64,000 nucleotides of DNA, from NCBI GenBank assembly GCA_963930775.1, contig OZ005689.1:5518001-5582000 (forward strand), in the 5' to 3' direction. Positions 24,626-49,212 of the stretch are shown here, piece by piece. The notes beneath the pieces are model-generated. The model made no database searches and was not told the DNA's origin. It was given only the letters and a program-made list of their open reading frames with translations. The translations under genes were made by a program, and so were the position numbers. The DNA comes from Cliona cf. orientalis. Lineage: Eukaryota; Porifera; Demospongiae; Clionaida; Clionaidae. How positions within the stretch are numbered: position 1 is the stretch's first letter; each line of letters begins with the position of its first letter.

Positions 24626-27600
24626 TTATAAAATATGACATTGTGCATGTATGCATAATATAATATTATTTATTTTACCATTCTGATTCAGTGGCTCAAT
24701 AGAGATTTCCTTAAATTTTTCACGGATTCTCTCTTCTATGGTCTGTTTCTCTCTTGTTGAATAGGCGCACACAAGACAAACGTGATGCGGCTTGTTTGCA
24801 TCACCAGGGACCAGATCAATTAAAGGAATTTCTCTATCATAGTGCTTAATTTCCATGTCGTCATGTGATTTTAAAATCTCATCGAGTTCCTATATAGAAT
24901 GGGCTGTTAATAACTGAAACACTTGTGACCATAATATTATCTCCTAGCTGTATAGCTATAATGGCGCATGAAATTGTGGTCATAAACGGTCATCACTGAC
25001 ATCGATATGGCATGTCGGCTCCTCAGTCACAGAGACCTTAATAGTGACAAGTTTCGATATACTTCTATCACAGAGATGAACTCGATAGCGTAGCACATAC
25101 ATGTATACATGTACAGCTTCCGAACTTCGTACGATCGTGGCAGCATGATATTATGTGATATATATAGTGCAAGGCTAGCGAAGGGATTGGCACCCGACTA
25201 AATTACCTTGACCACAAAAAAGTAAATTGCTACCGGGAATATAATTAAGGCCACTCAAAATCACTTACTAGTTGTTTCTCATCATCCCCCCCCCCTCCCC
25301 CCTTGATCATGATTTCCACTCGGATGTATTGCATCAGCACAATTCAACCACTTAATTTTTTTGGACTGTTGAATTTGAACTTATGGTTTTGACGACCATT
25401 TCCCATCAAACTTATGATTAAACGACAATTTCCATCCGCCTGCCGCATCAGTTTTGGGCTGGGGGGATGAGAAACAATGAACCAGAATTGATTTGGAATG
25501 GCATTATGATCATCTTCTTTAAGTTACCTTTAAGGATGTGTAGAAACATCCTATAGAATTTTCTACTTGATACTTAATGACGTTTAATTCAATACCTGGC
25601 TCCAAACGTATTATGCAGGCTGCATTCAGAAGAGATGCACATAATATTTTTCATCGTGCTATAATTATATCACTTCTAGTATTATAATATATATGTACCT
25701 TTAGCTAAAAATTTAGCAGATCTTAGACCACATTTTTCGAGTTTTATACGAAGAGACTCTCTAGTGAACTTGAAAATATGACCCTCAACAATGAACTCAC
25801 GGTATTCATCACTTTTGTCTTGATTTAAAGTATTCAAATAGTTGATATTAATACCATTATCCTATGATATTATTATAGTAATATATATTAGACAATTATT
25901 TTTTTGTTGTTCCTTACATTCAAAATAGTCAGCACACGAATAAGAGCCCCACAAACATGATTGACAGTAAACTCCAAAGTAGTCCGTGAACCTAAAAATA
26001 TAAAACCCTTGGCACGTTGCATGGCATTTGCTTCACAAACAGGCAACAATACAATAATATAATAGGCCATGCAAACTACAAATTAATGTCATTGATTTCC
26101 TAGGTTAGCATGAGCACCCGCATATACTTCTCAGCCTTCCTACTTCAACTCCTTCGTAACCCTCGCGTATGCGTACATACCGTACATGCCGTATACAGAG
26201 TATGACACACGACGTTCTATTTATACCTAAAGTCATGCTACCGCTAGCTGGGAAAAGTTAAGAGGCTTATAGAATCAGCAAAATTAATGATGTCAAAACT
26301 ATCGAATAAACTTAAGCATTTTCTGCAAAATCCACAATGTCATATAAAATCATACATTTGGAATGCCCGCATTTTGGACTCGTAAACGAACATAATAATT
26401 ATGATATTTTTCCCACAGCCCAGTAGTATTGTGACTTTGGACGCATAATAGGATGTTTATTTACTAGTTAACTGCATGCACTGTATTTTCAATCAGTGGC
26501 ATGGAATTTAATCTATTGCTAGATCTAGTGGGTGCAGCTATGTCCAAATGTAATTATATTTGGTGTTTCTATACTAACATGACGTTGTGCATTACCGTAA
26601 CGTTGTATCTGGTCAGAAAAAGCTCGTGAAAATTCTTGTTTTGCACACTCAATGCAACATAATGCAAGGGCCTAGGCCTTGCATTAAATATTAATATATG
26701 AGGTATTAAGAATCTTAAGTTTGTATATATAATACCATATACTTTTATAATATACTACGGGGTGCCGCTAAAAATCATTACAGAATCCTGATTGCATAGG
26801 CACTTCCAATTAGAACCGAAAAATTTGCGAGCGGGTCAAAGGGTGCCTTAATTAGGGAGGCATCTGTAAGAACTGCAATTAGAACGGTTCTGGATCAGAG
26901 CTCAAAGTAACCGGTACTATTTAGTGGCAGTGACTATATATATATCAGTGGCAAAAACAACAAAAATATAGGGTTTTAGCTATAGTTTCAATTCTTTTGG
27001 AAGTACTGCCAAATCATATTTGAGTTGCTGGTACAGTAGCATCAGAACGGTTGTCTCTAAATAATAGTTAGAGACTGAGTCCAAGGTCTCTACGCATTTT
27101 AAAAGACCTGAAGGCCCTGGGCTGTAGCATCCCGAGTGCAGCGAGGGTGCTACTAAGGGTCTGAGGGTCTTTAAAAAGTGTAGAGACCATTGGATGAGGT
27201 CTCTAACTGATTTAGAATATAGCAACTGTAACCATGACATTTACCCTGGGGACTAGGCTAGTGTTGCACCTCTCTAAGAGGTCTATAAGTGACCTGAGAG
27301 GTCTCTAAGTGAAATAATGGACCTCCAACTGACCAATCAGATTACTGTATTTGTTACAACTATAATTATTCAGAAAGACATCTGAGCAGTAGGTAAGTGC
27401 CCATATTATAATTATTATATTAAAATGTAACAGACAGCTTACAGTTTGACATCTAAAGTGCTAGCTCAATAGCTTGATGGACAGTATGGCGGTATTGTGA
27501 TATAGCACATGGCAATACGTTCCAATTAAATAGGCGCTGCCAATCCTGGCGCTGCCTAAATAACTGATGTCAGGAAAGGCTAGCTATAGAACCGAAAAAT

Positions 27601-30600
27601 TGTGCAGATCTCAAAGGGCGCCTAAATTAGGGTGGCACCTATATTAGAACATATACGGTATTATACTTGTGAGTACCTCGCTTTGTGAGGTCGGACTCAT
27701 CAGATTCTGAAACATGTGAATGTAGAGGTTCAACATCAACACCTGCTCCTGGACCAACACACTGCCGTATTCTGCTACATAGTGCCTCGACGTCTACATG
27801 TTCTCTTCTTGAGCACTCGTACACAATGTGAAAACCTTTGGGTTTCTCGCCACTCTGACGTTGTATAGTGTCAACACAAGATATGCTAATCCCTTTTTCC
27901 TGCAAATTGGACAATCATTAATATGCATGCATGATACGATATAATTATAATATATGTATATATTAATCAGTATACTCACCTGGAAAGCATAAAGTACTTT
28001 CACGAGAGAGCCTGGTTTATCTTCGACAAATACATTCATGCCCTTAAGTGATTGATATCGTTTATGACCACGACACGATTGTTTGATAAAGATCAGCATA
28101 ATAACTAAGAATCCCACCAATAATATGATGGTCAATAAAGCAGTTACTTCTATTGCAGTTTCATTGCTTTTATCTATAGTATAAAAGATAATAACAATAA
28201 GTATGATAATCATTTTTTATCATTACCTGAATCCAACGTTCCTTCGATAATGACTGTCATAGTGCCATTTCTTTCAAAAATAACAAAGTAGCAACGAGAT
28301 ACATCATTGGGAGTTGTCGTAGTTGAGTCTCCAAGAATATTATTATCTGAGTCTGCTTTCCCAAATAGATTTTCACAGTTGATCCCATAGGTTGAGTTAG
28401 AAATGGACAATTTTGTGAAGCCATTCAATTTTGTAGGTTCATTCGAATATTCACAGACAATCTCTCTCTTGTCATTGATATCAAATAATTTATTGACACC
28501 ATCTACGTACATGCAGATAACATGCAGCTAGCTATTCACTGCAATATCATAAGAAATATTATGTCTTTACAGCTCCATGCATTAAGTTAAACTTTAATTA
28601 ATAACTATTGATCCAGGAGGATTAATAGATCATGAAAGGTAATAAAAATTAATTATAAAGGTCATACCAGCAAATATAATAATTGTAGGAGGACTTTCTC
28701 CAAACATGTTAGTGGCAAAGGCAGTCACCATGATATTAGCATCCGGAGAGCAAGATGAATCTTCCAATATGTGCTTGTAGACACCCTGCTCACAGTGGGA
28801 TGCAGGGATTATTGTGGTGTTACACTTCATGCCAGAATCAGCATCAGTGTAAATAATAGTATAGCTGTCAGGACCTGGTAAATTTGGAACTGCCTATAAT
28901 AAAAATTAATATCAGGTATGCATACAATAGACTGCATGACCATTATGTTACCCTAGATTTACCATTATAGTTCACAACACAGATGTCATTGACAAGAACT
29001 GTTATTGGCATGGCATCTGCTCAGGTGCATATTATAATATTATTATTATTAATTCACCCCACCCCTCGGGCCATGCCATAATATTATTATACTTGTGTCA
29101 TACCCCCTACCACTTTCCTATCTTTGCTATAGTATATAGGTGGGTATGTGGGGCAAACAATAATACTATAATATATTGATAAGTGCATAATACTCTCAAA
29201 GGTATTGTCGACACCTAGACTAAATACGTACACAAAAACAGTTTGCTCAACAAAAAAACACGTATCACTGAATAGGCCTCACTGAGTGGAAGCTATACTA
29301 ATATCCCATGCAAGCATGGATTATCCATGTCCCAAAGGTATTCTGTTAATACCCATGGGGTATAAAATAATAACATACATATCTGAAGACCCCCATGGGT
29401 ATTACAGTAGTGGATGCCTAAATTTTTGGCTTGATGGTGCAAACTGGCAGCAATTTATATATAATAATATATATAAATTGCTGCCAGTTTGCACCATCAA
29501 GCCAAAAATTTAGGCATCCACTACTGTAATACCCATGGGGGTCTTCAGATATGTATGTTATTATTTTATACCCCATGGGTATTAACAGAATACCTTTGGG
29601 ACATGGATAATCCATGCTTGCATGGGATATTAGTATAGCTTCCACTCAGTGAGGCCTATTCAGTGATACGTGTTTTTTTGTTGAGCAAACTGTTTTTGTG
29701 TACGTATTTAGTCTATGGGTCGATCATCCGGAATCAATATAATTATTATATAACTGCGGTACCCTTCCTTTACAGTGTAGCTACTGTAATAATGTACATT
29801 ATTTAATATGGACATCTAATGGACTCACAACTTCTTTGATTGTAACACTCAGTTGTAGAAGTGCATTTTTCGATATCAAAAGAAGGGGGGCTTCTGGTAC
29901 TATAATAAAGATAATGTATTAATAATTCTGCATTGGTTGTAATTATTATATTACCTCCCCATACAGTAGCAATTTTTTACTTTTCTGGTTAATATGAGGT
30001 AATTAGGTATAATCTATGAGGAAAATTCAGGGCCTCAATGGAGCTTTTCTGGTATTTGAAAATCGGTATGTACGTAGAGTATCTAGCTAGTATCTAACAC
30101 ATGTATCCAGCGAATATACCTTATAAGCTGCATGCTACTTTGTCTGTAAACTTCTTGCCTTGCGTAATCCCTATAGCTAGCCTGCGCCAAAGCATGCCGT
30201 CCACAATCCATCTATGATTGAAGCATCAAGGTTTGTCACTTTCAAGGTTGAGAGTCGGTCTCAAATCTAGACTCCATCTCCGCAATTGGAGCATCTATTG
30301 TGCGCATTATGTTGACGACATACTTATGCACTGTTTTCACTATGCAACTAACTGCATGCATGGGGATATATATATGGTATATATATTATAGTGTTCCATT
30401 ACAATTAATACCTTTTAGCACCACCTGAAGTATGCTACTCATATTTCCAACCTCTTCATTACACTTTGACTGTACAGCTATACTACATAGTTGTATATCT
30501 GTGGATATTAATTTTGTAAATCTTCACATACAACAGTAGCTGAATCTATACTTTCATGACAGGAACCACAGTTTGTTGCGTGAATATTATATCTGAAGGG

Positions 30601-31526
30601 AGGGCACACCAGGCTAGAATTTAATGGGTCCCAGCTGAATTTGAGATGTGTTGTATTCACTTCCTCCAGATGCAAATTCATTGGGGAGTCTGCATGTATT
30701 AAAGTTATATAATTAATTGTTGGGATTTTGCTCAACAGTGACTTCAAAGCAAAGTCTGAGTCAACAATATTATGACTTCAATCATGCACAACTGCAACTT
30801 GAACATGGTATTGCATATTACTTTCATCTGTATCTGGCCAGCTCAACCCACCAGGGCCATCCCCCTCTCCTATTCATAATGCTATAACTAGGTCTGACAG
30901 AGAGTTGGTAAAACTAAATTAAATGATCTGGAAGCTAGTGCAGAGATTGTAAATAATGTTTCTGGTATCATAATGTGGTGCTGCATGTGCACAGAATCAT
31001 GATCATGAGGAAGACTTAGTACACATAATGCATACCTATCATTGTCCATGTATTGACATCTCTCTCTATATCAGTATAATGAGCACAAGTAATCATACTG
31101 CCATTTGAGAGTGTGGTCATTGTTAGATTGATAATGAACCTTGAAGTGTAAATTAAATTTGCGCTGTCTCTACTCATAGCTTTGACCGTGATGGCACCAC
31201 CATTGCACGCCTGATACCGTGTGGTGAAATTGTCATCATGATTTAGCGTAACATCACTGCTTCTGTGACAGTCCTTGATAAAACTTGCTCGCCATACAGT
31301 TGCCCCTGTACCGTTGATGCTACACTCAAAGGAAAGTTCACTCTCTGGACAGACACAGCCACTTGGAGGCAGTGAAAATCTATTTTCTTGCAAAGGATTG
31401 GAAAGATCTGGAGAGTATAATATGTAATATTAATGATATTATTCCTATGAAAATTAAAATTAATAGTTTCCTACCAACTAAATCTAGAGTTGCCAACAAA
31501 ATTATGATATAGACAGCTGACAACAT
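24626..31526 (-). CDS. R1: Ig/FN3 transmembrane protein with three predicted cytoplasmic ACT domains
   Basis: Exons: 31526-31475, 31407-31036, 30689-30412, 29899-29829, 28893-28668, 28502-28227, 28173-27980, 27899-27677, 25991-25918, 25861-25699, 25619-25528, 24889-24626. About 760 aa if read through. Order: signal peptide 1-17; Ig-like domain to 141 (CVCPESELSFEC ... ITCAHY); FN3-like 142-233; linker; FN3-like 258-332; a cysteine-containing module to 424; TM about 436-455; ACT1 about 468-560 (MNVFVEDKPGSLVKVLYAFQ, EKGISISCVDT); ACT2 564-642 (LEFTVNHVCGALIRVLTILN, DNGININYLN); weaker ACT3 from about 650 (VIKYQVENSIGCFYTSLK). Ectodomain introns are phase 1; a phase 0 intron splits every ACT domain at the same place. 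Exon 3 has a 2-nt frame disturbance near 30525 (TAA), so the copy may be broken. The ACT call is by motif reading only. Confidence 0.72.
27066..27208. repeat. Inverted repeat with a CCCGAGTGCAGCGAGGG core
   Basis: AGTTAGAGAC at the left is complemented by GTCTCTAACT at the right, with AAAGACC...GGTCTTT inside and a GC-rich core like that of 16095-16230. The following ACCAATCAGATTAC...TTGTTACAACTATAATTATT also appears, inverted, beside that element. Confidence 0.6.
29216..29715. repeat. Near-perfect 500-bp palindrome in an R1 intron
   Basis: The 250-bp left arm is complemented by the right arm about the centre 29465/29466, with essentially no spacer; by eye only a position or so differs (AATAATAT against AATTATTAT near the centre). 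Both strands encode the same 75-residue open frame, which is a by-product of the symmetry. No target-site duplication is evident at the ends. Confidence 0.9.
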
Positions 31527-32350
31527 GACATTGTACACAATAGTGGTTAGAGCTTCTTAAATAACCGCCAGCAACTTTGAGTTCTGACTGTGTGATGTCC
31601 AGTTCCACTCTAGTTATAGTCTGCAATGTCCTAATAAGTTGGTGTCCTATAACATATCACAACGTTTTTGCGCATGCGCAGGAATTGGGCTCGTTTAATT
31701 ATGTCGCGCATGCGTACGTGGGCACGTGGGTACAACGGACCCTCCGAGAAGCGGACAAGTGCCGTGTTACCGATTGAATTTAGCATAGTTTTAGTACATT
31801 AGCAACCTCCGAGAAGAGGACGCTTCTCGATTCCGGACAGCGGACAAGATCCAAGCTCCCAACGTCACTTTTATAGCGGACATCCAGAAACCACGCCCTT
31901 AAAATTAACGGTGCCACGCCCACCTTTGTCGCAATCTAGGCGGTCGCGATATTATGCTGCATGCGCGATAATAATATTAGCCTTGAATCCAGATAACGAT
32001 TTTGGAGTAGCCAGTACTTCAGAAACAAAAAAATTCAGCCTGTGCTATGTTGATACTGAAAACAGAACATATCACCCGATCAACCACTTGATTATCATCC
32101 CTACTGCTCTTGTTATGCATTTTAGTACATTTACTAAGATAATACAATCAAATGGGTTAAAAAAATCATGAACCTCGTGCATGCGTGCACACGGGGTAAT
32201 AAGAGTAAGTTTATAATCATAAAGCATGAGCTATTTATGGAAATGTATGACACACACGTCTTAGTGACATCTATAGCTACAGTGTACATGTGCATACACA
32301 AACTTGTGCTCATTAATATACAATAGGTAAAGTCAAGTCTTGTGGTTAAT
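31527..32350. other. R1/R2 intergenic spacer
   Basis: About 0.8 kb between the R2 stop and the R1 start on the same strand. It contains short direct repeats of CTCCGAGAAG with GCGGACAAG (31742-31850) and one ATGACATTGT copy overlapping the R1 start codon. No gene was seen. Confidence 0.5.
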
Positions 32351-35300
32351 TCAATGTTTAGCGATAAAGGGTAAATCCTTCTGTAGCTGTGATTTCATAT
32401 GCACTGGAAAAGCAAGTTCAAGAAGTAATTTTTGCTGTCCTTCCTTAGCAAGATCCAGTTTGGCTGATATTAATTTACATTTCTGCACTGATGGTAGCTG
32501 TATGAGATGTATAAAAATTAATTTTGGTTGTATTCAACTTTAATTTGACCTCCAATATATTATAATTATTAAGGGAATGTGTGACAGGTAATAGTAATAT
32601 TATAATATCATGGGCACAAGGGATCTATGACATTGTGATATATTGCACCAAAGCTCAAGGGCGCTTTGTGGACTCGAGCTTTGGTGCAGTATGAGCTTAG
32701 CTCAGTTGACTAGCTAGCTAGCTGACAATAGCTATATCTATCTATACTAGCTACTAATAGTCCAGCATCAACAATAGTGGCGTCCTTTAGTTTCCCATGC
32801 AATCGAGAGAAGCATACAACACTAGCTAGCTAGCTAGCTGTTGCACGTGAATGATTGCTAAATAATATGGATCTCTATACATGTAGAGTAATTTACCAAT
32901 CATCGGATATCGTCGAATCCCGGACATGCGGTTTTAGATGAGTTGGTTGGAATCACAGTCATGGTAGGCCATATACTAAATGATTCCATGCTTCCTACAA
33001 CTTTCTTTAGCTTACAAGTGGAGCTAGCCAGTAGTCATCCTCTATTTGCGTCCGATTCATCGAAAATGATTGGGTGGAGTCCCACTGGTGGGCATGGCTA
33101 AACATGATCGAAATGGTGGACCGGAGTTAGTTGCTAGTGCATGTACCTGTAGCAGCGTTGACCGATTCTGATCATCACCAAGATAGAATATGCAAGCATG
33201 TCCGAGATTTGAAGCGGAGGTCCGGTTTATAAATTTGTAACATTGTATCTTTGAGCACAATTTGCAACAAAGATTGGGACATACGGTTTGCGTCATTCGT
33301 TAGCTGACTGGTAGCTCTATCTACTGAGTACTCTATCATTTAAAATTATTGTTATGTCCGAAAGTTATGGGTTGCTTTATAAAAACCGTCCGGATTTCGA
33401 TGATCTACTCTAATTCAAATTTTCGTTTTCATGGATTTCAATATTCGATTTATGTGGAACACTTTAGTACAGCTATTTGCCTTGGAGCTCTCATAATACC
33501 ATGGATCCTATTGGCCAGATTTTATAAGTAACCAAGTAAAACCTACAAGTAACTAAGTTACTTAGTTACCTCCCATTGACCAATCAGATTACAGAAAAGT
33601 GCATGGCAGTAAAAATTATAATAATAATAATATTATACTCTTGGTGACATCTGCAATAGTCAATAGTACAGAATCTGATGGCCTGGGTATGCCATTATGC
33701 ATGACAAACACGTTCAACTAAATAATCGTTCATAATATTCATGAATACTTTAGCTATAACTTAAGTGAATGCATGCATCAAACCATATTATCCTGCTTGT
33801 AATAATATTATAAGAAGTTACCTGCATCACGTCTAAAGATTGTCCTGGGGTATTTTCAATCTCAAATTCAACAGTTCCTGTCTCAGTATCTGCGTGATAA
33901 GTCACAAAACATGGCATTCAATTTGATGTTTGAGCTAATAATTGTGTACCTTCACCAAGGATTACATCACACTCTTTCAGTTTCTGTTTTAGAACCGACA
34001 GTTCATCTCTGCTTAGGCAATCACATATAAGAATAAAGTTGCGAACATCACATCCGTGAGACTTAGTTTCGCCACCTCCATCCAAACGAATAATGTTGAT
34101 TTTACGATTCTATTAATATAATAATTGCATGAGACTGTCATTATCTAACTGTCTACTAGTATATGAAACGATTACCACTGCATCCCTAGTATATAGCTTC
34201 ATTGTATATGGTAAAGGGTCATTATATATGTAAGCATACTTAAGTTATGCAATGTTACATAATCGTTAAATGCTTTAAGTGACATAACTTCAAAATTAAA
34301 ACAGATGCATTGACAAATTTATAGAACCATTTTCCACATTCACCTGTATCTGTACCAAATTTCATGATTCGATACCCTTACTGTTTCAGAAAAGTAAACT
34401 GCTACTATATAGGGATGTAATTATTCAGAAAGTTGGGAAGATAAGGCCACACAAACTAAATTCGCTGTTTATCGTCACCACTTTTTCCATTTTCCATGCG
34501 GGCGAGCGGTCATTATTCATTATTCATTGTTCATTTTCTTCATCGTTGCGAGCCACGCCCCTCACTCAAGGGGCGTGGTTTACCATTAACGGGCAATGCT
34601 AAGGTTAAAGGTCATGCGTGCTCATTGAGGACAGCGAGTCTAAGGCAAGTTTTCTACTTGTTAGGGTGTCATTAGAAGGGAAATAAACGCTTTGGACGTG
34701 CTGTGCATAATATATGTCGAACATTTGAAGGTTTTGTGCAGTGTTCATGTGATTAATAATGAATAATGAAAATTTTGCTGGATCTTCAAAATAGCATGCG
34801 GGCGGTGACGCTTAACAGTGAATTTAGTTTGTGTGGCCTAATAATTATGTCCCGAGTCCCAATTCATAAATCGATTCGGCCAACCGATGAGGTAATTATG
34901 ATGAATAATGATGAAACCTATGATGAAATTAGAGCTCTGTAGAGCACATACCCTGCGCGCATATCGCGCAATTTATAGATTTATTTTTGGTGCATGGCTA
35001 TATTTGAGAGAAATAGTGGAAATGCTGCTTAGTTGCTGGGGGTCCCGGTGACACTTGAAAAGCGCTCTCTGTACCCAGACCTAGGAAGACATGCACTTTT
35101 ACCTAAGGCCAGTGTTAGTTGTAAACGTATTTCTGGTCACCCGCCCGCATGCTATTTTGGAGGCCGCCTGTTTTGGCCATTATTGTCATTATTTGGCTCT
35201 GCGCATGCTCAGTTCAATTACCAAAATTAATGTCACCATCCTGTCTGTGGTTTGTCCAGGAAATGTTCAAATTGTACAGGATATGCTGAGGTAAAATAAT

Positions 35301-38300
35301 GGAATAATGAATAATAATAACCGCCCGCCCGCATGGCTAAGTGAGCCCTGATGTGACCAGAAACACGTTTACAACAAACAGTGGCCTAAGCTATATTTTG
35401 TTGTAATGTTAAATAGTATAGCTATCTTACATTATGATTGGTCCATACGCTTCAGATTTCAGTCACTATAGACTTCACGAGCATTATTTAGAACGTCGAC
35501 GATCTTTACCAGTCACACGCTTGGCCACTTCGTTGTGCGCATGAGCAGAAAGCACAATGAGCCTGCATCATGCATTAATCATTGTGGGCACTGTCAATGT
35601 TTCTAATACTTCCTCCCAGAAGTTGTTGTCAGTCACCAATAGTTTTTCTTTAACTCAAGTTGTCACTGAACCCACCCGTATAGCTATCGAATTCTAGTAC
35701 CCTCATTGACCTTATTTTTTTATCCTCTCCCTCACAGCTCTCTTCCTGTGTCACTATCCCGCCACTTGCAAATTCCGACCACCTTGGTCTACAACTTTCA
35801 TTATCAACTACGGGTAACTCTCGTCGTGCTCATCCTAAAACAGAGAGGAAGTTGTGGAAGTATAACCAAGCAGATTTTGATCTGGCTGCCGAAATGATAA
35901 ATGATGCAGATTGGAACTCCATACTATCTGAAGACATCAACTCGAGTTGGAATAAATGGCATAGCAAATTTATGGAAATTATGCATGCTTGCATTCCTCG
36001 CGTAACAGCAAAATCCAAGAAAACTCTCCCCTGGATCAATAGGCATATCCTCCAGCTGATAGCAAAACGAAACTCCTGTTATCGCCGTTTGAAGAACATT
36101 GCTGATGACCGCAGAGATGCTGATCTTTTAAAGTACAAGTCATTGAGAAATAGAGTTGTGGGACTCATCCGGGAGGAGAAAAGGAGATACTTTGAAAACA
36201 TTAATTCATCAGACCAGAAAGTGTTTTGGAAGGCTGTCAGGATGCTAAATAACACAACCTCTTCTATTCCTACTCTTGTATCTCATTGTGATGGGTCACA
36301 TGCAACTACAAGTAATGAAAAGGCCAAATTGCTGAACCACTATTTCTACAGTTGCTTCAACAAATGTCTTCCCCCGCTTTCTGATGAGGATCTTCAACCT
36401 CCTGCATCCACAAGTTGCTCAGAATCAATCTTGATAGCTGAGGAATATGTGGCTTCTGCTCTGCAAAATCTTGATGTCTCCAAATCTACAGGAATCGATG
36501 ATGTATCTGCTAGAATGTTGAAGCATACAGCACTAAGTATAGCCCCTAGCTTAACGAAACTTTTTAATCTTAGCATCACTGCTGGCTGCCCTGATAACTG
36601 GAAGATAGCGAGAATTGTTCCAATTCCTAAAGCAGATGATATGTCATCCCCAACTAACTTTAGACCAATTTCGATCCTCCCCATTGTTAGTAAAGTCCTG
36701 GAGCGCCATATATCGAACATCATCATGGATCATTTGGAACATGTTGCTCCCATTTCTCCTAATCAATGGGGTTTTATGCCAGGTCGGTCAACCATCTCTG
36801 CTCTACTCTTGATCACCAATACTTGTCTTCAGGCCTTGGATGACGGTCATGATGTGTGCACTATTTTCTTTGATATCCGCAAGGCATTCGACTCGGTACC
36901 ACACCAACTTCTGATGGAGAAACTGAAAGCGATCGGTTTAAATGACTACCTGTTGCACTGGCTACACACTTACCTTTCCAACCGAAAGCAAGTTGTGGTT
37001 GTGGATGGAGAGTCATCTGAGGAGCTGCCTGTCTTGTCTGGTGTGCCCCAGGGATCCGTTCTTGGGCCACTGCTTTTTCTTGTATATGTCAATGAAGTAA
37101 CAGGTCAAGTCTCTGCTGACAGCAGTGTTGTACTGTTTGCTGATGATATAGCTCTATATCGAGTAATAACTTCCATTGAAGACTATGCACAGCTACAATC
37201 TGACATCGATTCAATAGCTGATTGGGTGGATGAGAGTCGCCTTTCTCTCCACTCAGGTAAATGTCGTGCCATGCTGTTCAGCCGAAAGCGTACCCCATCC
37301 CACCAACCACTGACTCTTAAGGGCAACCAACTGGAATTTGTTAACAAGTATAAATATCTTGGACTGATCTTCTGCTCAAGCCTTCACTGGTCTGAGCATA
37401 TTAACTTCATTTGTACTAAAGCAAGAAGGCTGATTGGGCTATTATATAGAAGGTTTTACGAATTTTCAGATTCTCAGTCGCTTCTCAAACTTTATTGCTC
37501 ATTCATTCGCCCCCATATGGAGTATGCCTCGATTGTTTGGTCCCCTTATTTACTTAAGGACAAAACAGCTATTGAGAAAGTGCAACACTTCGCATTAAGA
37601 GTATGTCTAAAGGACTGGTCACTTAATTATGAGGAATCACTAGATCTTGCACAACTGCCATTCCTGGAAGCACGAAGAGACAGTGCAAGCTTATGCTTCT
37701 TGTACAACATCATTCACCAGAATATGGATTTTGAAAGTGCTCCAATTGCAGCCAGATCTGTAGCACGGTTTACTAGGCATAGTAATAGCCACCAACTGCA
37801 ATTGCCATTCTGTCGCACAAGCCAATACCAAAACTCATTCTTTCCAAGAACAATTTCGGAATGGAACTCCCTACCTGAAGGGCTGCTTACTAATAGTGTC
37901 ACTCTCTCATCATTCAGACAAGCTATCCTTTCAAACTCTCACTAACTTTTATAATTACATACTATGCATCACTTATTTATTATACTAACTCTTTATGTCA
38001 TAGCTTATAATATTATTGTCTTTGTATAGGTACATGCTTGAATTAGCTCTTGGCTACTCGTGTATCTTCTGCATTTTGCAGGAATTCTATATAAAAAAAA
38101 AAAAAAAAAAAAATAGGCGTGGCTACAGTGGCCAACAAAAAGACACAATTTGTGACGCTCGTGGACCATATCCCTCGATTTGACGCGCACTGAAGCCAGT
38201 TTTTCGCCCAATTCTATTGATTCGTTGTACTTACGAGTCGCTTAGACGCCTACATCTCGAGATATGGCGATTTTTGTGCTAACGACAACGACTACGACAA

Positions 38301-39714
38301 CTAGAGCTCTATAGAGCACATACCCCGCGCGCTGCAGTGTCGACGACCTTTACCTACATATTGTGCCAGGTTGTGCGCATGAGCAGAAAGCACATGGTGG
38401 GTAGTGTCCATAGGCGTGGCCAACAAAATGCCAAAATGCAGTATTTGCGATGCTTGTGGACCTTGCCAAACGATTCGAAGCATAATGAAGCCAGTTTTTC
38501 GACGATATCGACGGATATACTGTACTTACGAGTGGCTCAGATGCCTAGATCTCCAGATCCGGCGATTTTGTGCTAACAACAGACACAACCGATCACTTTA
38601 CCCCTTGCGCATGCGCGCGGGGTAATTATGATGAAATTGGGGTGAAAACCGCTTCAAAATGTTTAGCTCGCATGACAGGGTATTGGGACCCAGAATTCGA
38701 ACCTAGCGTAGAAGAGATCGTGGATTATCGATGATACATGGCGATTCTCTCAGTTCGCTTTCTTTGGCGAGCTCGCACTCTGGGGGGATTTCCCTATTCA
38801 GTCTAGCACATGGCAGTGGAGGTCACATCCGAGTCAACCGGCTCAAGCCGCGCGCCCCAATATACACGTATACGGAGTATGCACACTGACAGTTCGTCGA
38901 TGTATCCTAGTTCGAATTATGGCGGCATAGGGACTCGGGATGTAGAGTCTAGGTTGTTCATAACATCCCGTAGTCCCAATGAACAAAAAGGAATTCGGCT
39001 CTTGCTATGATGGAAACCTATGATGTAATTGCTGTGAAACTGTTTCAAAATGTTTAGCGTGCACGAAAGGTTGTTGGGACCCAGAATTCGGACCTAGCGT
39101 AGATTCGAGATCATGGACTATCAATTGATATGATATTATGGCGACTTTCTCAGTTCGCTTTCTTTGGCGAGTTCGCACTCGGGGGTATTCCCTATTCAGT
39201 TTAGCACATGGCAGCGCAGGTGGAGAGGTCACGTCCGGTTCATGTCAACCGGCTCAAGCCGCGTGCCCCAATACACGCATAGCTATATGGAGCATGTGCA
39301 GTTTGTCGAGGTGTCCTAATTCGAATTTTAATATGGCGGCATACAGTAGCGCAGCATAATACTTTTCATGAGGGACGAGGGATGTAGCTAGTCTAAGTTT
39401 TTCATTACATCCCGGCGAGTCCCAATTAGAAAAAAAAAACAATTCGGCCGACCGATGAGGTAATTATGAGTAATGATGATTAATGATGATGAAAATGCGG
39501 TTAAGACTGTTTCAAAATGTTTAGCGCGCATGAAATCTTATTGGGCCCAGAATTCGAACCTAGCGTAGAAGACGTCGTGGACTATCGATGAGATATGGCG
39601 ATTTTCTCAGTTCGCTTTCTTTGGCAAGCACGCACTCGGGGGGATTTCCCTATTCAGTCTATCTAATTCGGGGCGAGCCTGAGCGAGCCCCGAATACACG
39701 AGAAACCGGAAGCG

Positions 39715-39750
<36 letters not shown>

Positions 39751-42700: not shown

Positions 42701-45700
42701 GAAGTTCCAGTCAAGTTCCTGTCACGCCCATTGGTGGGAATCGAATGTATTGCGCTCTATGGGAGCATAGATGATGGAAGTAGCGTGCGTTTTGGAGGCT
42801 ACACAGACTGAGCTACAAATTGGATCATACATGTAGTTTCCCATCCACCGCCTCCATTAGTCTGGCGGGCCAGCCCCTTCGCAAGAGGGAGGAAGGGTCT
42901 GGTGTCATTGTACCGCTGCAGCCAGGAGTGCAGCCCAATCAGATCGCTCCACGTCACCACTAATATTGCGTGGCTACTGGTATGCAGGCCGACCAATCAG
43001 AGGCCCGCTCTTCTTGTTCAATAAACAGTTGGGGTTGTCCCTACCACGCGTTCTGACCAACCAGGTGCTAGATCTGCATGAGGCTGGCGATCATAACAAT
43101 TTATTAAAAAACGAAGAGCAGGCATCTGATTGGTCAGCCCGAGTATTTAGATAGCTCCACAATATTGGTGGTGACGTGGCGCGATCTGATTGGGCTGCAC
43201 TCCTGGCTGCAGCGGTACAAATCGCGTATAGGCATGACACCAGACCCTTCCTCCCTCTTGCGAAGGGGCTGGCCCGCCAGACTACGCCTCCATGCCTTTC
43301 AAGCCACCGCCAACTTTTTCTATTATTGCACTTGTTTCCTATTAAAACGAAAATATTGATGATGTAATTGTAATAATTATGGTCTGTTCCATGTGCACTC
43401 AAGTTGCAAGCTGAATTTGCAACGTCGGTGGCTCATTCATGTGTAGCTACTAGCCTCGTCCCCAGGCTCTACCCGTGAGTGGCTTAAGCTTCATTCATAG
43501 TTTTAAGATTATGCTTGCCATGTCAGCTGAAGATTACGGGATTAGCTCTTGAGTCATGTACCCGGCAGCCATTTATGATTTATACCACATCCGATAATAA
43601 TGAATAAGGATTAACCACCCGCCTGCATACTATTACAGGATGGGAAACAACTATAATTATTGTAGTGTCCATATACATGTTACAGTGTAATCCCACAATT
43701 ATGCTCCCTAACACATAAGCCCCCTGCACTTTAGCTCCTGCATCTCACTCGTGCCCAGCCCTGCTTTCACGTACGCAGAGGGTAGCCTCGTCCCCAGGAG
43801 TGGCCTGGGGACGAGGCTACACGGAGAGGTCTGGACAAACGTGTATAATTATAGGGCCCGTATTGCCCTTGCAGCCTATATAGCTACAGTGCACGCCAAT
43901 CAGATGCACAGATCAAGTCACATGACTGCTTGCGCATGAATGGAATGCAAATTAATGACGTGCCCAATGGAATATTTATTAATCAGAAATACGTGACGTT
44001 AGCTATACTAGGCATATTACATCAAAATTTTAGATTATCTCTTACACTTTCTTTGCTATACACACAATAATAAAGGAGGCTACAAGATACAATTTAGTCT
44101 TTGTTCCGTAAAATTTCATTGAATGGTTGCGGAGATATGGCTGTTTTAATATTTCTAAACATCACAATTCATTTTTCTGCCAGGCTTGTGTGTACTATTC
44201 CAATAGGGGAATGGCACGTAACATGTTGATTGCTTTAGAGGCCTATAACTCAAAAACTACACTACTGATTGACTCCAAACTTGAAATATAGCACGTAAGT
44301 ACCTCTCTGCTTATTGTATCGATGAAGTTAACATGCATTAATGAATAAAAAAAATTTGGTGTGCATACCTGTTTGACTGCTATTGTAGCTAATACTTCAC
44401 TGCCTCAGAATTCCAGAAGCTGACTTCATGCATGATTTTTTGAAATTTCTAGTTTAGATGTCCACTCAAACATATACACAATGTACATAAACTCTCACAG
44501 TGGTACACACATGTTCACACATGTACATGCACATTATGCACATATTTTAATATTGTTTTCTGAAGTGGAATCTATTCTTAAAGTGTAAGACAAGCCCTGA
44601 GTTCCTTAGAAGCAACAAAGAGTTTAAAGTGCATGCACTTTCTATGTGGCATATTTTTTGGCAGAAATAGTCTAGCTAGGGGTAGTTTGAGCCAAATATT
44701 TCATTTTTCGTATTTTCAACGCATTTTCTCATGTGTACACATGCTATTTTACACAAAATAAAATGCTGATTGAGCTCTTTTCGACCGTACACTTCAAAAA
44801 TGGTTGAAACTACTGAAAAATTTGAAATTAGCACCTTGAAGTACCCCTAGAAGCATAAAATGCCCTGGAGAAGTGAGCAGCATGGAGCAAGTTGAAGTTA
44901 TCCATTAGCAATATTGTTGTTGTAGTTGTAGTTGTTGTTGTCGTCGGCACGAAAATCGCCAGATCTCGAGTTCTAGGCGTCTGTGCGTGTTGTAAGCACA
45001 ACCAATCGATAGATATCGGTGAAAAACTGGTTTGTACGCGCTTCGAATTGCTCAAAAAGGCTTACTAGTGCTACAAATCGTGCATTTTCTGTTCTGTATG
45101 CCTGTGGTTTGTCGACCACACCCACTCTTTTAGTATGCTGATGCAACTGCGCATGCTCAAGCTCAGTGTTGAAAAGGGTCGTCAAGTCATAAAACAGCTT
45201 TGCCCAAGTTGCAATATTGCAGAGTATTGCAAAGCGCGCGGGGTATGTGCTCTACAGAGCTCTAGTTGAGTATGTGGTATTTTATGGAGTTTTCCTGAAG
45301 CCCTGCAATTCCGGAAGTGGTTGCAACCCAACACTTTGGATACTGCAGTGTAGTGCTATCTTTAATGCTGAAGCCTGTGGTGCAAGTTTGGTGTTCGTAG
45401 CACATTGTAGTGAGTAGTTATGATCCCTGAAACTTCATAATATTTAAATGTGTGCAGGTTTTCTATAGGCAATTTTTTGTGATTCTGACATGCCTAGCTA
45501 TAGCTAGCTACTTTCTTCGGTAGTTTTGAGGCTCCCCCCCCCCCCCCCCCCCCCCGACTGGATATTAGAGTCCACAATATAAAAGCAGTAGCTTCAGCTA
45601 GCTAACTAGCTGTTAGTATAAATAGCATTATTATGCCTTACTTTGTCATTTTTCTACAGTTTTGCCCAAAGTACAGAAATTGCGTGCCCACGACAGTCGG

Positions 45701-48700
45701 TAATGGTCGTCACACTGAAGTGTAACGCTCCAGCCTGCGAATAAGCCCTCTCCCCACCTTTGCCCAATGCTAGCATGCGCATGCATAAAGTGGGGTCATG
45801 ATTGCGGAATTTTACGATGATAGCATTATCACGTACCCCTAGTACTTCCATTGCCTCTGCAAGGGTACCTCTTTCATCTTTGACAGAGAAAGACAAAATT
45901 GTACGGTTTGCAGGATGTACAGTTGATCCTGCAGTAATAATGATATTAATTATACAGTATTATGACATAATATTGTGCATGCTATAACTCCGTATTCAGT
46001 AACTTAACATACCAGATTCTAAATCATCATCATTGGCTTTGTTCTCCAATTTAACCACTTCTGCTTTAGCTTTAAAAAGATCCTTAATCAAACGTTTCAC
46101 CTTTATTTTAGGACACTCGTACGAAATATGAAATCCTTTGCAAATTATAGAATCCTTTATTATTGTTTTTGGATAAGTGTGCACAATAGTTATGTTGACA
46201 TCGTGATCCTAAATTATGAATATTAGTCATAGTTTTGAAATTGATAAAATAAATTGATGTAATTATAGTCTAAGCTTGTCTCCAGACCCCACCCTCAAGG
46301 AGGGAAAAGAGTCAGGACTCAGGTGACGGGCTGTTTGCTTGGTCTAGTCTCGTTCCCAGACCCGCGAGAAAAGGGTCTGGGGACATTGGAAGCCTTTTCA
46401 TGGTCTTGCACACCATCACATGATTGTACGTGCTCCAATACAATTTGAAACTTATGCAAAATTTAATAATCATATTATTGCTGAGCTTGCAGAACCAAGA
46501 ATCAGTGCCAATGTCCGCAGACCCTTTCCTCCTTTTGGGGGGGTCTGGGGACAAGACTAGGCCAGCTCTGGGCCTGAGTGTGCACTGACACAATTGCACT
46601 TAGCCTCGTTCCCAGGCTTTCTGGGAGAAGGCCTATAAGGACGAGGCTAATTATAAATAATGCAAAGCTCAGATCTAATTTTTCAGTAAGTATAGCTACT
46701 AGTGCCGCTGTGTGGGTGCATGATTTCAAATTTGTATCTACAATAAGCAATGGCATGTACAAGCTTGTTAATGAGTCATAATAATTATGACTGTGCTAAA
46801 GCTGCAATCTGATTGGTATGCATGTGCAAATTCCTCTTATTAACTACATAATATTATATTAAAATTATATAGCTGGACCAAGCTTTTTGCCCAAAATCAC
46901 CAGATCCATTAGTATATATACTCTCCTCAAGGGTGGAGTCAGGGGATGAGACTATAATAGGTATACCTTAAACACTTGTAGTGCTTTGGGAAGGGAATTT
47001 GGCTCATCACTGACATAAAATTTAATGCTATGTTGAGTGATCCAATGGAAATCTTTGATGACTTTTGCAATGGCTAGAAGGCCTATTAGGGATAATAGAC
47101 TGAGGATTCCAATGGCAACTTTGTAACCTATAATCGATCCAAATTAAAAATTAATAATAATTATTATTATGTTACAGGTTGTTACTTATATTATTGTTGG
47201 TATCATGATATCATGACATTGTGTACATGTATTATAATAATAGTGCCTACTATAAGCCCCGTTTACACTAGGCCCTTATAATCCAGATTAGAATCCGGAT
47301 TAAACTAATCCAGTTTCTGTATAAACACCTTAATCCACTTTTAGTATCCACATCCTGATGTGGATTAAAAGTAGATTACATATAAAGTTATGGGCCATGA
47401 AAATATTAATCCGGATTAAGCACAGCTAGTGTGTAAACGATTTAAACTGGTTCAATTTTAATCTGGATCAGTGCATGTGTGCATGTAAACCGGACTTATG
47501 TGTATAATATCTCGCTATCATATTTATACCCTATACATGTGTGCTTATCCTAGTATATGAAATACCCATGGCTATATTCAGCTACTGTATCATTGATTCC
47601 TTGAAAATGTGTCACACGGGCCCTTACCTGGGAGTGTATGCTTGCCCGGAATATGCAATGTCTCATTAGGTGGCCATAAACAACTTACCATTGCTTATAG
47701 AAATCAGTTCTCCATCTGATTCATCTTTCAATATAACTTGAAGAATATCACTAAGATTACCAATAAGACTATTAACCGCACCACCGCACCTTCTCTGCAC
47801 AGCAATACTGCACACTTGTACATCAGCCATTTCTAAATCCAAAATTTCACAATATACAGTAGTTGAATTAACACTGTCAAGACACACTCCACAATTTTTG
47901 GTGAAGATGTTGTATGTTAAGAGAGGACAGTTAGAAAGCACGGAGTCCCAACTGAATTTTAGATGTGTTTCATTTTTCTGCTCCAAACGCAAATTTGCTG
48001 GTGGATCTGGTGGTAAAGTTCAATCAGAAGCATAATTATAATAATATTATGAAGGGAAGAAGCATGATTATATTTATATTATAGTGCATGGTATATTATA
48101 CCAGAATTTAGGTACATTAATTAAAATTCCACACTCTAACAATGTAATTTCTCCCACATGCATGCAGCGCATGACAATCGAGAAAAGCAAGCGTAATAGT
48201 GGATGTGATTATCCCTACAAATCTTGTTTGTCCTTTTTGACCCTGCCATCCCTACTTCATCCTTCAATTTTATACTTGTTATTATCATGGATAAAGTGCC
48301 TTGGACTTGTGGGAATTGAAACCCCGTGCAACCCTTTATAGCTATGATGGGAGCACAAGACCTTAACAACTGAACCAAGCTGCCAGACATGTACACACAC
48401 AGCACATGCAGATGCATGCATGAATATCATGAAATAGATTCATAAATAATTAATGCAATTCACCACGATATTAAGGGTATAGCTGTACAAATAAACAATA
48501 GCCAGTATAATATTATATTAAGTTCTGTATAATTTATTTAACTTAATCATGTCTTAATAATATATTATAGAGAGTGCCCCAGATCCCATACTTTGGACTT
48601 CTCATTCCTTATTAAATTTTCTCCTTAGGAATTCAGAAACTAGTCAACAAAATTTTAGGAGCCACCCATACATGCTGCTTATAATAATATTATATGCATG

Positions 48701-49212
48701 CATGGGAATCAAATACAGTGATTATTATGTACCTATCATTGTCCATGTACCAACAATAGTTACTGTTCTGTTTAAATGATCATGAGCACAAGTAACCATG
48801 CTGCCATTTTTGAGAGAGATCATTGTCATGTTGATATCCAGCTGTGATGTATACATTCCATTCTCTACTGGCCTAAGATTATGTGGTCGGGCTACCACAG
48901 CTCCATTATTACATATCCCATAGTAGTTGAAAGTATTGAATTGATTGTGAACAAGTGGGATTCCAACCGATTTGGTGAAGAAATTTCCATTCCATACCGT
49001 TATTCCTTCGCCTTCAATGCTACATTCAAAGGTAAGGTTACTGCCTGGACAGATACAGCCAGTTGGAGGCAATGGAAATCTATTTTGTTGCCATGAGAGA
49101 CCTGTAAAGTGTGCAATGAAGTATAATTATTGAGATCTACAATCATACATCGTGTAGCTAAAGTCTTACCAACTTGAGTGGCCAGGAAGAGAATAATGTA
49201 GACAGCCGACAT
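32351..49212 (-). CDS. R2: Ig/FN3 transmembrane protein with three predicted cytoplasmic ACT domains
   Basis: Exons 49212-49170, 49101-48733, 48006-47689, 47127-46967, 46208-46013, 45928-45837, 34109-33950, 33889-33822, 32497-32351 give an uninterrupted 517 aa with consistent phases. Signal peptide 1-14 is nearly identical to that of R1. An Ig-like domain follows to 137 (CICPGSNLTFEC ... VTCAHD), one FN3-like domain to about 243 and a TM at 246-267. ACT1 runs about 275-350 (IKFYVSDEPNSLPKALQVFK, DHDVNITIVHT); ACT2 about 370-446 (LSFSVKDERGTLAEAMEVLG, NRKINIIRLDGG); ACT3 about 450-517 (VEFEIENTPGQSLDVMQ plus a terminal exon). The ACT2 start closely resembles the regulatory ACT domain of aromatic amino-acid hydroxylases, but their ESRP phenylalanine-binding motif is absent. 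It lacks the second FN3 and extra module of R1. The intron inside ACT2 is 11.7 kb. Confidence 0.8.
35596..38113 (+). mobile_element. 5'-truncated CR1/L2/Jockey-like non-LTR retrotransposon
   Basis: The element reads from the last part of an AP-endonuclease domain to a poly-A tail of about 21 A (38093-38113). The endonuclease end is split by one frameshift near 35680-35696: VVTEPTRI lies in one frame, STLIDLIFLSS and the SDH catalytic motif in the other. It lies antisense to R2 in its large intron. Confidence 0.85.
35699..37945 (+). CDS. LINE ORF2: endonuclease remnant plus reverse transcriptase
   Basis: A continuous frame of about 748 codons ends at 37945. Order: the C-terminal end of an AP-like endonuclease (PLANSDHLGLQ), a linker, then a reverse transcriptase with NFRPISILP, WGFMPGRST, FFDIRKAFDSVPH, SGVPQGSVLGPLLFLVYVN and the catalytic LFADDIALY, followed by the C-terminal region typical of CR1/L2/Jockey-type LINEs (RRLIGLLYRRFYEF, then SLPEGLL). 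The enzyme copies its own RNA at a nicked genomic site. No stop codon interrupts the reverse transcriptase, which suggests recent insertion. The N-terminal endonuclease is missing or shifted, so the element is probably not autonomous. Confidence 0.88.
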   Translation, partial: TLIDLIFLSSPSQLSSCVTIPPLANSDHLGLQLSLSTTGNSRRAHPKTERKLWKYNQADFDLAAEMINDADWNSILSEDINSSWNKWHSKFMEIMHACIPRVTAKSKKTLPWINRHILQLIAKRNSCYRRLKNIADDRRDADLLKYKSLRNRVVGLIREEKRRYFENINSSDQKVFWKAVRMLNNTTSSIPTLVSHCDGSHATTSNEKAKLLNHYFYSCFNKCLPPLSDEDLQPPASTSCSESILIAEEYVASALQNLDVSKSTGIDDVSARMLKHTALSIAPSLTKLFNLSITAGCPDNWKIARIVPIPKADDMSSPTNFRPISILPIVSKVLERHISNIIMDHLEHVAPISPNQWGFMPGRSTISALLLITNTCLQALDDGHDVCTIFFDIRKAFDSVPHQLLMEKLKAIGLNDYLLHWLHTYLSNRKQVVVVDGESSEELPVLSGVPQGSVLGPLLFLVYVNEVTGQVSADSSVVLFADDIALYRVITSIEDYAQLQSDIDSIADWVDESRLSLHSGKCRAMLFSRKRTPSHQPLTLKGNQLEFVNKYKYLGLIFCSSLHWSEHINFICTKARRLIGLLYRRFYEFSDSQSLLKLYCSFIRPHMEYASIVWSPYLLKDKTAIEKVQHFALRVCLKDWSLNYEESLDLAQLPFLEARRDSASLCFLYNIIHQNMDFESAPIAARSVARFTRHSNSHQLQLPFCRTSQYQNSFFPRTISEWNSLPEGLLTNSVTLSSFRQAILSNSH
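38651..40480. repeat. Cluster of four copies of a 160-400-bp dispersed repeat
   Basis: Copies at about 38651-38990, 39039-39450, 39509-39665 and 40264-40480 share GGACCCAGAATTCGAACCTA, GGCGATTTTCTCAGTTCGC, GCACATGGCAG and CAACCGGCTCAAGCCGCG. The order is constant but each copy is differently truncated. No coding frame is conserved. Confidence 0.7.
39717..39764. repeat. Microsatellite (TA)n followed by (TTTA)n
   Basis: About 14 TA units run directly into about five TTTA units. Confidence 0.9.
41063..41220. mobile_element. Short inverted-repeat element with GGCGTAGGAAG ends
   Basis: GGCGTAGGAAG at the left is complemented by CTTCCTACGCC at the right. An internal GGGTGCACCGGGTGCTGGTG block has a mutated inverted partner. 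Confidence 0.6.
41761..41900 (+). mobile_element. tRNA-derived SINE head
   Basis: A box-A-like TGGTGCAGTGGCTAGGACTC and a box-B-like CAGTTCGATCCTCGCTC stand about 32 nt apart, as in a tRNA-derived RNA polymerase III promoter. No clean cloverleaf or CCA-adjacent stem is visible, so I call a SINE rather than a tRNA gene. The 3' limit is uncertain. Confidence 0.55.
42640..42820 (-). mobile_element. tRNA-derived SINE
   Basis: The minus strand reads TAGCTCAGTCTGTGTAG (box A-like) and then CATTCGATTCCCACC (box B-like) about 60 nt later, with a non-tRNA tail following. The box spacing is larger than in a tRNA. Confidence 0.5.
42861..43285. repeat. Large inverted repeat, arms of about 110-120 bp
   Basis: TCTGGCGGGCCAGCCCCTTC...ACGTCACCAC at 42861-42960 is complemented by GTGGTGACGTGG...GGCCCGCCAGA at about 43159-43282, with a few differences and about 200 bp between. 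This is consistent with a foldback or nonautonomous DNA transposon. Confidence 0.75.
45530..45800. mobile_element. MITE copy with poly-C tract, one end degraded
   Basis: It matches 53390-53660 along about 250 bp (GCCTTACTTTGTC, GGTAATGGTCGTCACAC, CCTCCCCAC, TTTGCCCAAT, CTAGCATGC) after a run of about 22 C. It ends within about 40 bp of the donor of R2 exon 6. Confidence 0.6.
48185..48385 (-). mobile_element. tRNA-derived SINE with body
   Basis: The minus strand starts with a tRNA-like head (TTGGTTCAGTTGTTAAGG, then GGTTTCAATTCCCAC). It continues into a body ending near GATTTGTAGGGATAATCACA, the same body found at 6328-6425. It lies in an R2 intron. Confidence 0.6.

What the first reader, a model, noticed from the sequence alone, without database searches (positions are those of the whole stretch)
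24626..49212. Receptor-like proteins R1 and R2 combine Ig/FN3 ectodomains with three cytoplasmic ACT-like domains
Seen: both genes encode a signal peptide, an Ig-like domain, FN3-like modules, one TM helix, and then three repeats of a pattern 'strand-x-D/N-x-x-G-x-L-helix / INI-strand / strand / helix'. Examples are LSFSVKDERGTLAEAMEVL and MNVFVEDKPGSLVKVLYAF. Known: this is the ACT-domain signature, and the R2 ACT2 start resembles the regulatory domain of phenylalanine/tyrosine hydroxylases, where ACT domains bind amino acids and dimerise. Inference: these would be surface receptors whose cytoplasmic part senses a small molecule or dimerises through ACT folds. I know of no described animal receptor of this type. 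The ESRP phenylalanine-binding motif is not present, so the ligand may be different or absent.
Basis: partly seen in the sequence, partly recalled or inferred. Interest (0 to 1): 0.92.

Follow-up and report, generated by a model that had tools for sequence, protein, structure and literature searches.

The report
Surface receptors with cytoplasmic ACT-domain tails
This animal genome, probably a sponge's, carries a small family of cell-surface receptor genes whose inner tails are strings of ACT domains, the amino-acid-sensing module of the enzymes that hydroxylate phenylalanine and tryptophan; my limited searches found no record of such a receptor.

Summary
The finding holds, with corrections. 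Two tandem minus-strand genes, R1 (31526-24503) and R2 (49212-32351, with an 11.7-kb intron), encode Ig-like and FN3-like modules, one transmembrane (TM) helix, then ACT repeats. Pfam ACT passes its cut-off in R2 (35 bits) and R1 (31.4 bits). TM and the start of ACT1 share one exon in each gene, so this is no separate soluble gene. Units 1 and 2 are secure; unit 3 is marginal in R1 (3/1000 shuffles) and unsupported in R2 (76/1000).

An intact paralogue on another contig, R4, has four ACTs (64.8 bits). Two C4 genes have four ACT-like units each, below the Pfam cut-off where scanned. [quoted passage not shown]). Eleven of 14 units keep an intron at the position of human PAH intron 2, which this genome's two AAAH genes lack. 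R4 ACT1's predicted fold best matches TPH2. Ligand binding and dimerisation are untested; R1 is frameshifted as assembled.

The parts
31475..31526 (-). R1 exon 1: hydrophobic N-terminus, putative signal peptide (MLSAVYIIILLATLDLV)
   Evidence: ORF and donor site; Kyte-Doolittle 2.13; no signal-peptide predictor available
31036..31407 (-). R1 exon 2: Ig-like module
   Evidence: splice sites; no Pfam hit; 46% identical to R2's exon in the R2 search
30412..30689 (-). R1 exon 3: FN3-like module 1, with a 1-bp frameshift at about 30511 in the assembly
   Evidence: Pfam fn3 E=0.01, below cut-off
29829..29899 (-). R1 exon 4: FN3-like module 2, first part
28668..28893 (-). R1 exon 5: FN3-like module 2, second part
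   Evidence: no fn3 match
28227..28502 (-). R1 exon 6: membrane-proximal module of unknown fold
   Evidence: no Pfam hit
27980..28173 (-). R1 exon 7: TM helix and first half of ACT1 in one exon
   Evidence: TM KD 3.26; Pfam ACT
27677..27899 (-). R1 exon 8: second half of ACT1
   Evidence: 33.3 bits, 0/1000 shuffles for the unit
25918..25991 (-). R1 exon 9: ACT2, first half
25699..25861 (-). R1 exon 10: ACT2, second half
   Evidence: 32.0 bits, 0/1000
25528..25619 (-). R1 exon 11: ACT3-like, first half (degenerate)
   Evidence: 8.7 bits, 3/1000
24679..24889 (-). R1 exon 12: ACT3-like, second half
24503..24588 (-). R1 exon 13: C-terminal tail and stop
49170..49212 (-). R2 exon 1: N-terminus, possible signal peptide (MSAVYIILFLATQV), under the hydropathy threshold used
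48733..49101 (-). R2 exon 2: Ig-like module
47689..48006 (-). R2 exon 3: FN3-like module (no Pfam fn3 match)
46967..47127 (-). R2 exon 4: TM helix and first half of ACT1 in one exon
   Evidence: KD 2.46
46013..46208 (-). R2 exon 5: ACT1, second half
   Evidence: 36.8 bits, 0/1000
45837..45928 (-). R2 exon 6: ACT2, first half
33950..34109 (-). R2 exon 7: ACT2, second half, after an 11.7-kb intron
   Evidence: joined unit reaches Pfam ACT 27.7 bits, 31.0 bits, 0/1000
33822..33889 (-). R2 exon 8: ACT3-like, first half
32351..32497 (-). R2 exon 9: ACT3-like, second half, stop
   Evidence: unit not supported by sequence (76/1000)

Best explanation
R1 and R2, with R4 on contig C3 and two genes on C4, are single-pass cell-surface receptors. 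A member of a large local family of Ig/FN3-type surface proteins gained the regulatory ACT domain of an aromatic-amino-acid hydroxylase (AAAH) behind its TM helix, as a module bounded by phase-1 introns, and multiplied it in tandem. Most likely way of working: binding outside brings receptors together, and the tail ACTs pair side by side, as the PAH regulatory domain does. That gives a dimer or cluster whose stability is tuned by a small amino-acid-like ligand at the ACT-ACT interface in the units that keep the glycine loop. SHOWN: gene structure, shared TM/ACT exons, ACT membership of R1, R2 and R4, AAAH kinship, and the predicted fold of one paralogue unit. INFERRED: cytoplasmic side (from order of modules, K/R flank and sequon distribution), capture by exon shuffling, pairing, ligand tuning, and any downstream partner.
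For: Pfam ACT over cut-off in R1, R2 and R4 (64.8 bits, four stretches). TM and ACT start in one exon in R1 and R2; TM plus whole ACT1 in one exon in R4. 11 of 14 receptor units beat 1000 of 1000 shuffles against a profile of the other 13, and the genome's own AAAH ACT scores 39.2 bits, 0/1000, against the 14-unit profile. The ten-unit profile's 11 best PDB matches are PAH or TPH regulatory domains (1.7e-9 to 6.3e-6); other ACT families start at 6.3e-4. A phase-0 intron splits 13 of 14 units: in 11 at one alignment column, in R1u3 and R2u3 three columns earlier; R4 ACT1 has none (donor/acceptor contexts). That column equals human PAH intron 2 (codon 56/57; PMC6081236 passages; ungapped alignment). 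Single-sequence AlphaFold2 of R4 ACT1: pLDDT 74.4, E-H-E-E-H; best Foldseek match the TPH2 regulatory dimer with L-Phe, E=7.8e-4. Glycine of the beta1-alpha1 loop kept in 10 of 14 units. PAH pairs through residues 43-48 and 61-67 (PMC4822156 passages), which align with that loop and with the family's N-I-x-x-V-N/D-T stretch. dN/dS 0.41 over 205 codons of C4a/C4b ACT exon pieces. More sequons before than after the TM: R1 11 vs 1, R2 7 vs 2, R4 6 vs 3; K+R in the 15 residues before vs after it: R1 1 vs 5, R2 1 vs 2, R4 0 vs 2.
Confidence: 0.5

Rival explanations
1. Adaptor reading: the ACT tails bind no small molecule and act only as protein-protein adaptors, as TRADD-N or plant bHLH ACT-like domains do.
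For: Residues aligned with the PAH interface stretch 61-67 are altered in R1, R2 and R4; 4 of 14 units lack the loop glycine. A fold related to ACT is used as a signalling adaptor in animals: TRADD-N, greatly expanded in the sponge Amphimedon (PMC8195603 passages).
Against: No TRADD-N (PF09034) match in Pfam scans at E<=10. Ten of 14 units keep the loop glycine, and the position of PAH Ser67 stays S/T in 8 of 11 units by eye on the alignment (R1u3, R2u3 and the last C4 unit not counted).
Confidence: 0.27
2. Docking reading: the tail ACTs pair with the regulatory ACT of this animal's own AAAH enzymes, so the receptor holds or switches aromatic-amino-acid hydroxylation at the membrane.
For: The receptor ACTs are closest to PAH/TPH ACTs, and two tandem AAAH genes with ACT domains sit on C13. 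The PAH ACT forms a side-by-side dimer (PMC4822156 passages).
Against: No evidence of co-expression or contact; identity to the enzyme ACT is only 20% for R1 unit 1 and 27-28% for R4 unit 1.
Confidence: 0.13
3. Model artefact: unrelated receptor and soluble ACT-gene exons lie next to each other and were joined wrongly.
For: No transcripts; R2 needs an 11.7-kb intron; R1 has a frameshift.
Against: TM and ACT start share one exon in R1, R2 and R4; ACT units follow a TM on three contigs with consistent intron phases, and C4a and C4b conserve blocks at the modelled exons.
Confidence: 0.03
4. R1 and R2 in particular are decaying copies of a once functional ACT receptor such as R4.
For: R1 frameshift in the FN3-1 exon; degenerate unit 3 in both; transposon-like insertion in an R2 intron (judged by eye).
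Against: All splice sites of the models are canonical, the R2 frame is open for 517 codons, and ACT units 1-2 are well kept.
Confidence: 0.07

Closest known systems
Regulatory ACT domains of aromatic-amino-acid hydroxylases (PAH, TPH1/2; TH more distant)
   Same: Best profile matches in the PDB, best Foldseek match, same intron position as human PAH intron 2 in 11 of 14 units, same beta1-loop-alpha1 signature
   Different: No biopterin-dependent catalytic domain; three to four tandem ACT units; attached to a TM receptor; HIES stretch changed except that C4 units 1-2 keep IES
Plant ACR (ACT-repeat) proteins and CASTOR1
   Same: ACR proteins are built of two to four ACT repeats (PMC3173338 passages); CASTOR1 is an arginine sensor (PMC5187391 and PMC5020642, search listing only); that CASTOR1 has ACT repeats is recalled
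   Different: No receptor ectodomain or TM (recalled for CASTOR1; for ACR1-8 no motif other than ACT); the ACT subtype differs: ACT_7 hits R1 only at E=0.039, below cut-off
TRADD-N adaptor domains, expanded in the sponge Amphimedon
   Same: Domain structurally related to ACT, used in animal signalling (PMC8195603 passages)
   Different: Different sequence family; no PF09034 match here
Ig/FN3 receptor tyrosine kinases of animals
   Same: Single-pass receptor with Ig/FN3-type ectodomain; a probable FN3 receptor tyrosine kinase of this genome lies on C3 (L069/L070, judged by eye)
   Different: ACT repeats in place of a kinase

Membership tests
ACT domain (Pfam PF01842) | score over the curated cut-off (27 bits, whole protein) | tested here: met
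   R2 35 bits; R1 (571 aa after the frameshift) 31.4 bits; R4 tail 64.8 bits. Single units: 1 of 6 in R1/R2 passes alone, 4 of 6 match at E<=0.016, the two third units do not match. NOT met for the C4a tail: 21.2 bits
[quoted passage not shown]
ACT domain (Pfam PF01842) | small-ligand binding at the interface | not testable with these tools
   needs binding assays
AAAH enzyme family | AAAH-type regulatory ACT | tested here: met
   11 best PDB profile matches are PAH/TPH (TH only 0.087); own AAAH ACT 39.2 bits
AAAH enzyme family | Biopterin_H catalytic domain | tested here: not met
   no such match in Pfam scans of R1 (after the frameshift), R2, R4 tail and C4a tail; these are not AAAH enzymes
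TRADD-N adaptors | PF09034 match | tested here: not met
   none at E<=10; HMMER filters drop weak ones
CASTOR-like (ACT_7) | PF13840 over cut-off | tested here: not met
   R1 14.2 bits and its unit 2 15.6 bits vs 27; no such hit for R2
Single-pass Ig/FN3 receptors | one TM helix between ectodomain and tail | tested here: met
   R1 3.26, R2 2.46, R4 3.9 (Kyte-Doolittle); hydropathy only, no TM predictor
Single-pass Ig/FN3 receptors | Ig domain | tested here: inconclusive
   no Ig-family Pfam hit; weak immunoglobulin matches for a 12-sequence profile
Single-pass Ig/FN3 receptors | FN3 domain | tested here: inconclusive
   R1 FN3-1 fn3 E=0.01 below cut-off, FN3-2 none, R2 none
Single-pass Ig/FN3 receptors | signal peptide | tested here: inconclusive
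   R1 N-terminus KD 2.13, R2 under 1.6; no predictor; R4 exon 1 not found

The most novel reading that the evidence does not exclude
An animal lineage built a receptor class that carries the sensing half of a neurotransmitter-type enzyme (the AAAH regulatory ACT) as its signalling tail. External adhesion or recognition and internal aromatic-amino-acid (or monoamine precursor) levels are read by one molecule, possibly by direct pairing with the cell's own AAAH enzymes at the membrane.
Probability: 0.2. Interest if true: 0.93.

Novelty: new variant of a known kind. Interest (0 to 1): 0.74.

Why it matters
ACT domains are known as allosteric parts of metabolic enzymes and soluble sensors. A receptor family whose tails consist of AAAH-type ACT repeats would link cell-surface recognition to amino-acid sensing or to a new ACT-based clustering mode, probably in an animal without neurons. 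It also suggests a metabolic regulatory domain reused by exon shuffling, with an old intron still marking its origin. The paralogues give five genes in which ligand binding and pairing can be tested at once.

Tried and rejected
Rejected: (1) a separate soluble ACT gene (shared TM/ACT exons). (2) A 29-33 nt mini-intron to bypass the R1 frameshift: too short, and it would remove the conserved Cys (by eye). (3) TRADD-N or CASTOR membership. (4) C3:11364221 as another ACT receptor: by eye it is an FN3 receptor tyrosine kinase, and the ACT family profile, run on one strand's frames, finds nothing convincing there (best 7.9 bits). (5) A tree of 15 ACT sequences is poorly resolved (supports 13-75); it hints at R1u1 with R2u1 (75) and AAAH with C4 unit 2 (72). 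(6) An intron in the same column in all split units, as I first wrote: the check shows 11 of 14, with R1u3 and R2u3 three columns earlier; odds left unchanged, as the secure split units all agree.

Led nowhere: three protein-database searches with R2, R1 and R4 tails; plasmid tblastn with R4 ACT1 (none). Literature: 'ACT domain' with sponge+transmembrane+receptor (2 papers; of PMC8195603 I read passages, of PMC8217762 only the listing), Amphimedon (the same 2), transmembrane+fibronectin (3, listings only, none about such a receptor by title), cytoplasmic tail+receptor+metazoan (0), Porifera (0), 'ACT domain-containing'+receptor+cnidarian (0). 'Not in print' means only these searches in an open-licence library. 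In the VIA list (50 rows shown) no AAAH row appears. The organism was not identified by any search.

Rows dropped: C4b units 1-3 and C4a's last unit were left out as near-copies; four of 14 units (R1u3, R2u3, C4 unit 3, last C4 unit) were left out of the profile; one search used 205 codons of ungapped pieces, not whole exons. Of the 93 matches only C3:11364221 was looked at outside C4.

Full report
Gene models. I rebuilt both genes from the minus strand. R1 has 13 exons from 31526 to 24503, R2 nine exons from 49212 to 32351. All 12 and 8 introns are GT-AG. R2's last three exons (34109-32351), which complete ACT2 and hold unit 3, lie beyond an 11,727-bp intron. R2 is open for 517 codons. R1 has a 1-bp frameshift in the FN3-1 exon at about 30511, in a run of A: an assembly error, an allele, or real decay.

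Domains. Pfam finds ACT (PF01842) over the curated cut-off in R2 (35 bits, two stretches) and in R1 after the frameshift (31.4 bits, two stretches). Unit by unit, four of the six R1/R2 units match (E 2.2e-6 to 0.016); the two third units do not. In leave-one-out tests a profile of the other receptor units recovers R1u1, R1u2, R2u1, R2u2 at 31-37 bits with 0 of 1000 shuffles as good; R1u3 8.7 bits (3/1000); R2u3 1.9 bits (76/1000). So two ACTs are secure in each gene and the third is a remnant or a very divergent unit. Both genes put the TM helix and the first half of ACT1 in a single exon (28173-27980; 47127-46967). The ectodomain labels are weaker: no Ig-family Pfam hit, fn3 at E=0.01 for one R1 module only, none in R2.

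Paralogues. A Pfam ACT search of the whole genome at E<=10 gave five places: two AAAH genes on C13 over the cut-off, and three below it (E 0.10, 0.19, 0.77) that turned out to be parts of further receptors. The intron-split R1 and R2 were not among the five, so this search undercounts. R4 on C3 (4298001-4318000) is complete except for its first exon: Ig-like, FN3-like, FN3-like, membrane-proximal module, TM, four ACTs; 11 of 11 donors GT, 12 of 12 acceptors AG, one open frame. Its tail scores 64.8 bits, E=5.6e-18, four stretches, and its TM and entire ACT1 are in one exon. C4a (C4:4955001-4972000) and C4b (C4:3030001-3050000, minus) have FN3, TM, a second FN3 after the TM and four ACT-like units. 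The C4a tail reaches only 21.2 bits for ACT, but its units 1-3 beat 1000 of 1000 shuffles and the C4b last unit 990 of 1000. A C4a-C4b comparison conserves blocks at these exons, with dN/dS 0.41 over 205 codons of ACT pieces. A search with C4a gave 93 matches; those outside the two C4 loci centre on its FN3, with one weak match reaching into ACT1 (C19:5326909, E=0.11, not inspected). The matching search with R4 did not complete, so the family may be larger. The ectodomain belongs to a large family: 113 matches in this genome for R2 at E<=1, the window's own exons included, 83 of 535 candidates scored.

Origin. Of the PDB matches of the ten-unit profile, the best 11 are PAH or TPH regulatory domains (TPH2 1.7e-9, PAH 2.7e-7); other ACT families start at 6.3e-4 and TH at 0.087. 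The genome's AAAH ACT scores 39.2 bits against the 14-unit receptor profile. A phase-0 intron between helix 1 and strand 2 splits 13 of 14 units (one C4 copy counted): in 11 at one alignment column, in R1u3 and R2u3 three columns earlier; R4 ACT1 has none. On the ungapped alignment with PAH the column lies between residues 56 and 57, and human PAH intron 2 follows c.168, codon 56 (PMC6081236, passages). The two AAAH genes of this genome have no intron there. By my estimate a chance match of position and phase within one domain is about 1 in 240. Module borders are phase 1, the usual class for shuffled extracellular modules (recalled). I infer that an AAAH-type ACT module with the old intron was captured by a receptor and multiplied.

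Mechanism. PAH's regulatory domain dimerises side by side on Phe binding, through residues 43-48 and 61-67 (PMC4822156, passages). In the receptors the first stretch keeps its glycine in 10 of 14 units. The second tends to read N-I-x-x-V/L-N/D-T rather than N-L-T-H-I-E-S, except in C4 units 1 and 2, which keep I-E-S (alignment, by eye). Pairing therefore seems likely to survive, and ligand choice to differ. I put pairing with ligand tuning at 0.5, adaptor-only at 0.27, docking of AAAH enzymes at 0.13.

Novelty. No homologue was found in the protein database with three tails, but how many spliced eukaryotic proteins it holds is unknown. Six literature searches listed no such receptor. In one phylogenetic study PAH was not confined to Bilateria, while TH and TPH were, apart from one Amphimedon sequence judged rogue (PMC10244343, passages); so the source ACT was most likely PAH-like (inference).

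Noticed in passing
window 50107-52711, minus: A third tandem receptor (R3) with the same kind of Ig/FN3-like ectodomain, a Sushi-like module (20.6 bits vs cut-off 20.7) and TM, but a short tail with tyrosine motifs (by eye) and no ACT.
   Followed up: partly
window 35684-37945, plus: 753-codon open frame, by eye a LINE-like reverse transcriptase, inside the 11.7-kb intron of R2.
   Followed up: no
window 29286-29645: Near-perfect inverted repeat in an R1 intron: almost the same 75-aa frame is read on both strands.
   Followed up: no
window 30511, minus strand: 1-bp frameshift in the R1 FN3-1 exon, in a run of A.
   Followed up: partly
C13:540826-546836 (L001, L002): Two tandem AAAH genes with the whole ACT in one exon, lacking the intron that human PAH and most receptor units share.
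   Followed up: yes
C4 genes (L045-L048): A canonical FN3 (Pfam 6.2e-15 in C4a) lies directly after the TM helix, so an FN3 may be intracellular there.
   Followed up: partly
R1u3 (25619-24679) and R2u3 (33889-32351): Both degenerate third units have their phase-0 intron three columns earlier than the other units, which may point to a shared origin of unit 3.
   Followed up: no
own genome, mainly C1:2.76-3.01 Mb, also C2, C4, C10, C13, C16: Large family of related surface-receptor exons (113 matches); their tails were not surveyed.
   Followed up: no
window 4816-5748 and 6598-7437, minus: Two tandem paralogous frames ([14 protein letters not shown]...) followed by hydrophobic segments, possibly membrane-anchored; not identified.
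   Followed up: no
window 22424-23560 plus; 59285-60934 plus: Flanking genes: PIG-V mannosyltransferase (3e-67) and a SET/MYND protein.
   Followed up: partly
C3:11355001-11368000, minus (L069/L070): Probable FN3 receptor tyrosine kinase (by eye), found through its FN3 similarity to the C4 genes.
   Followed up: partly
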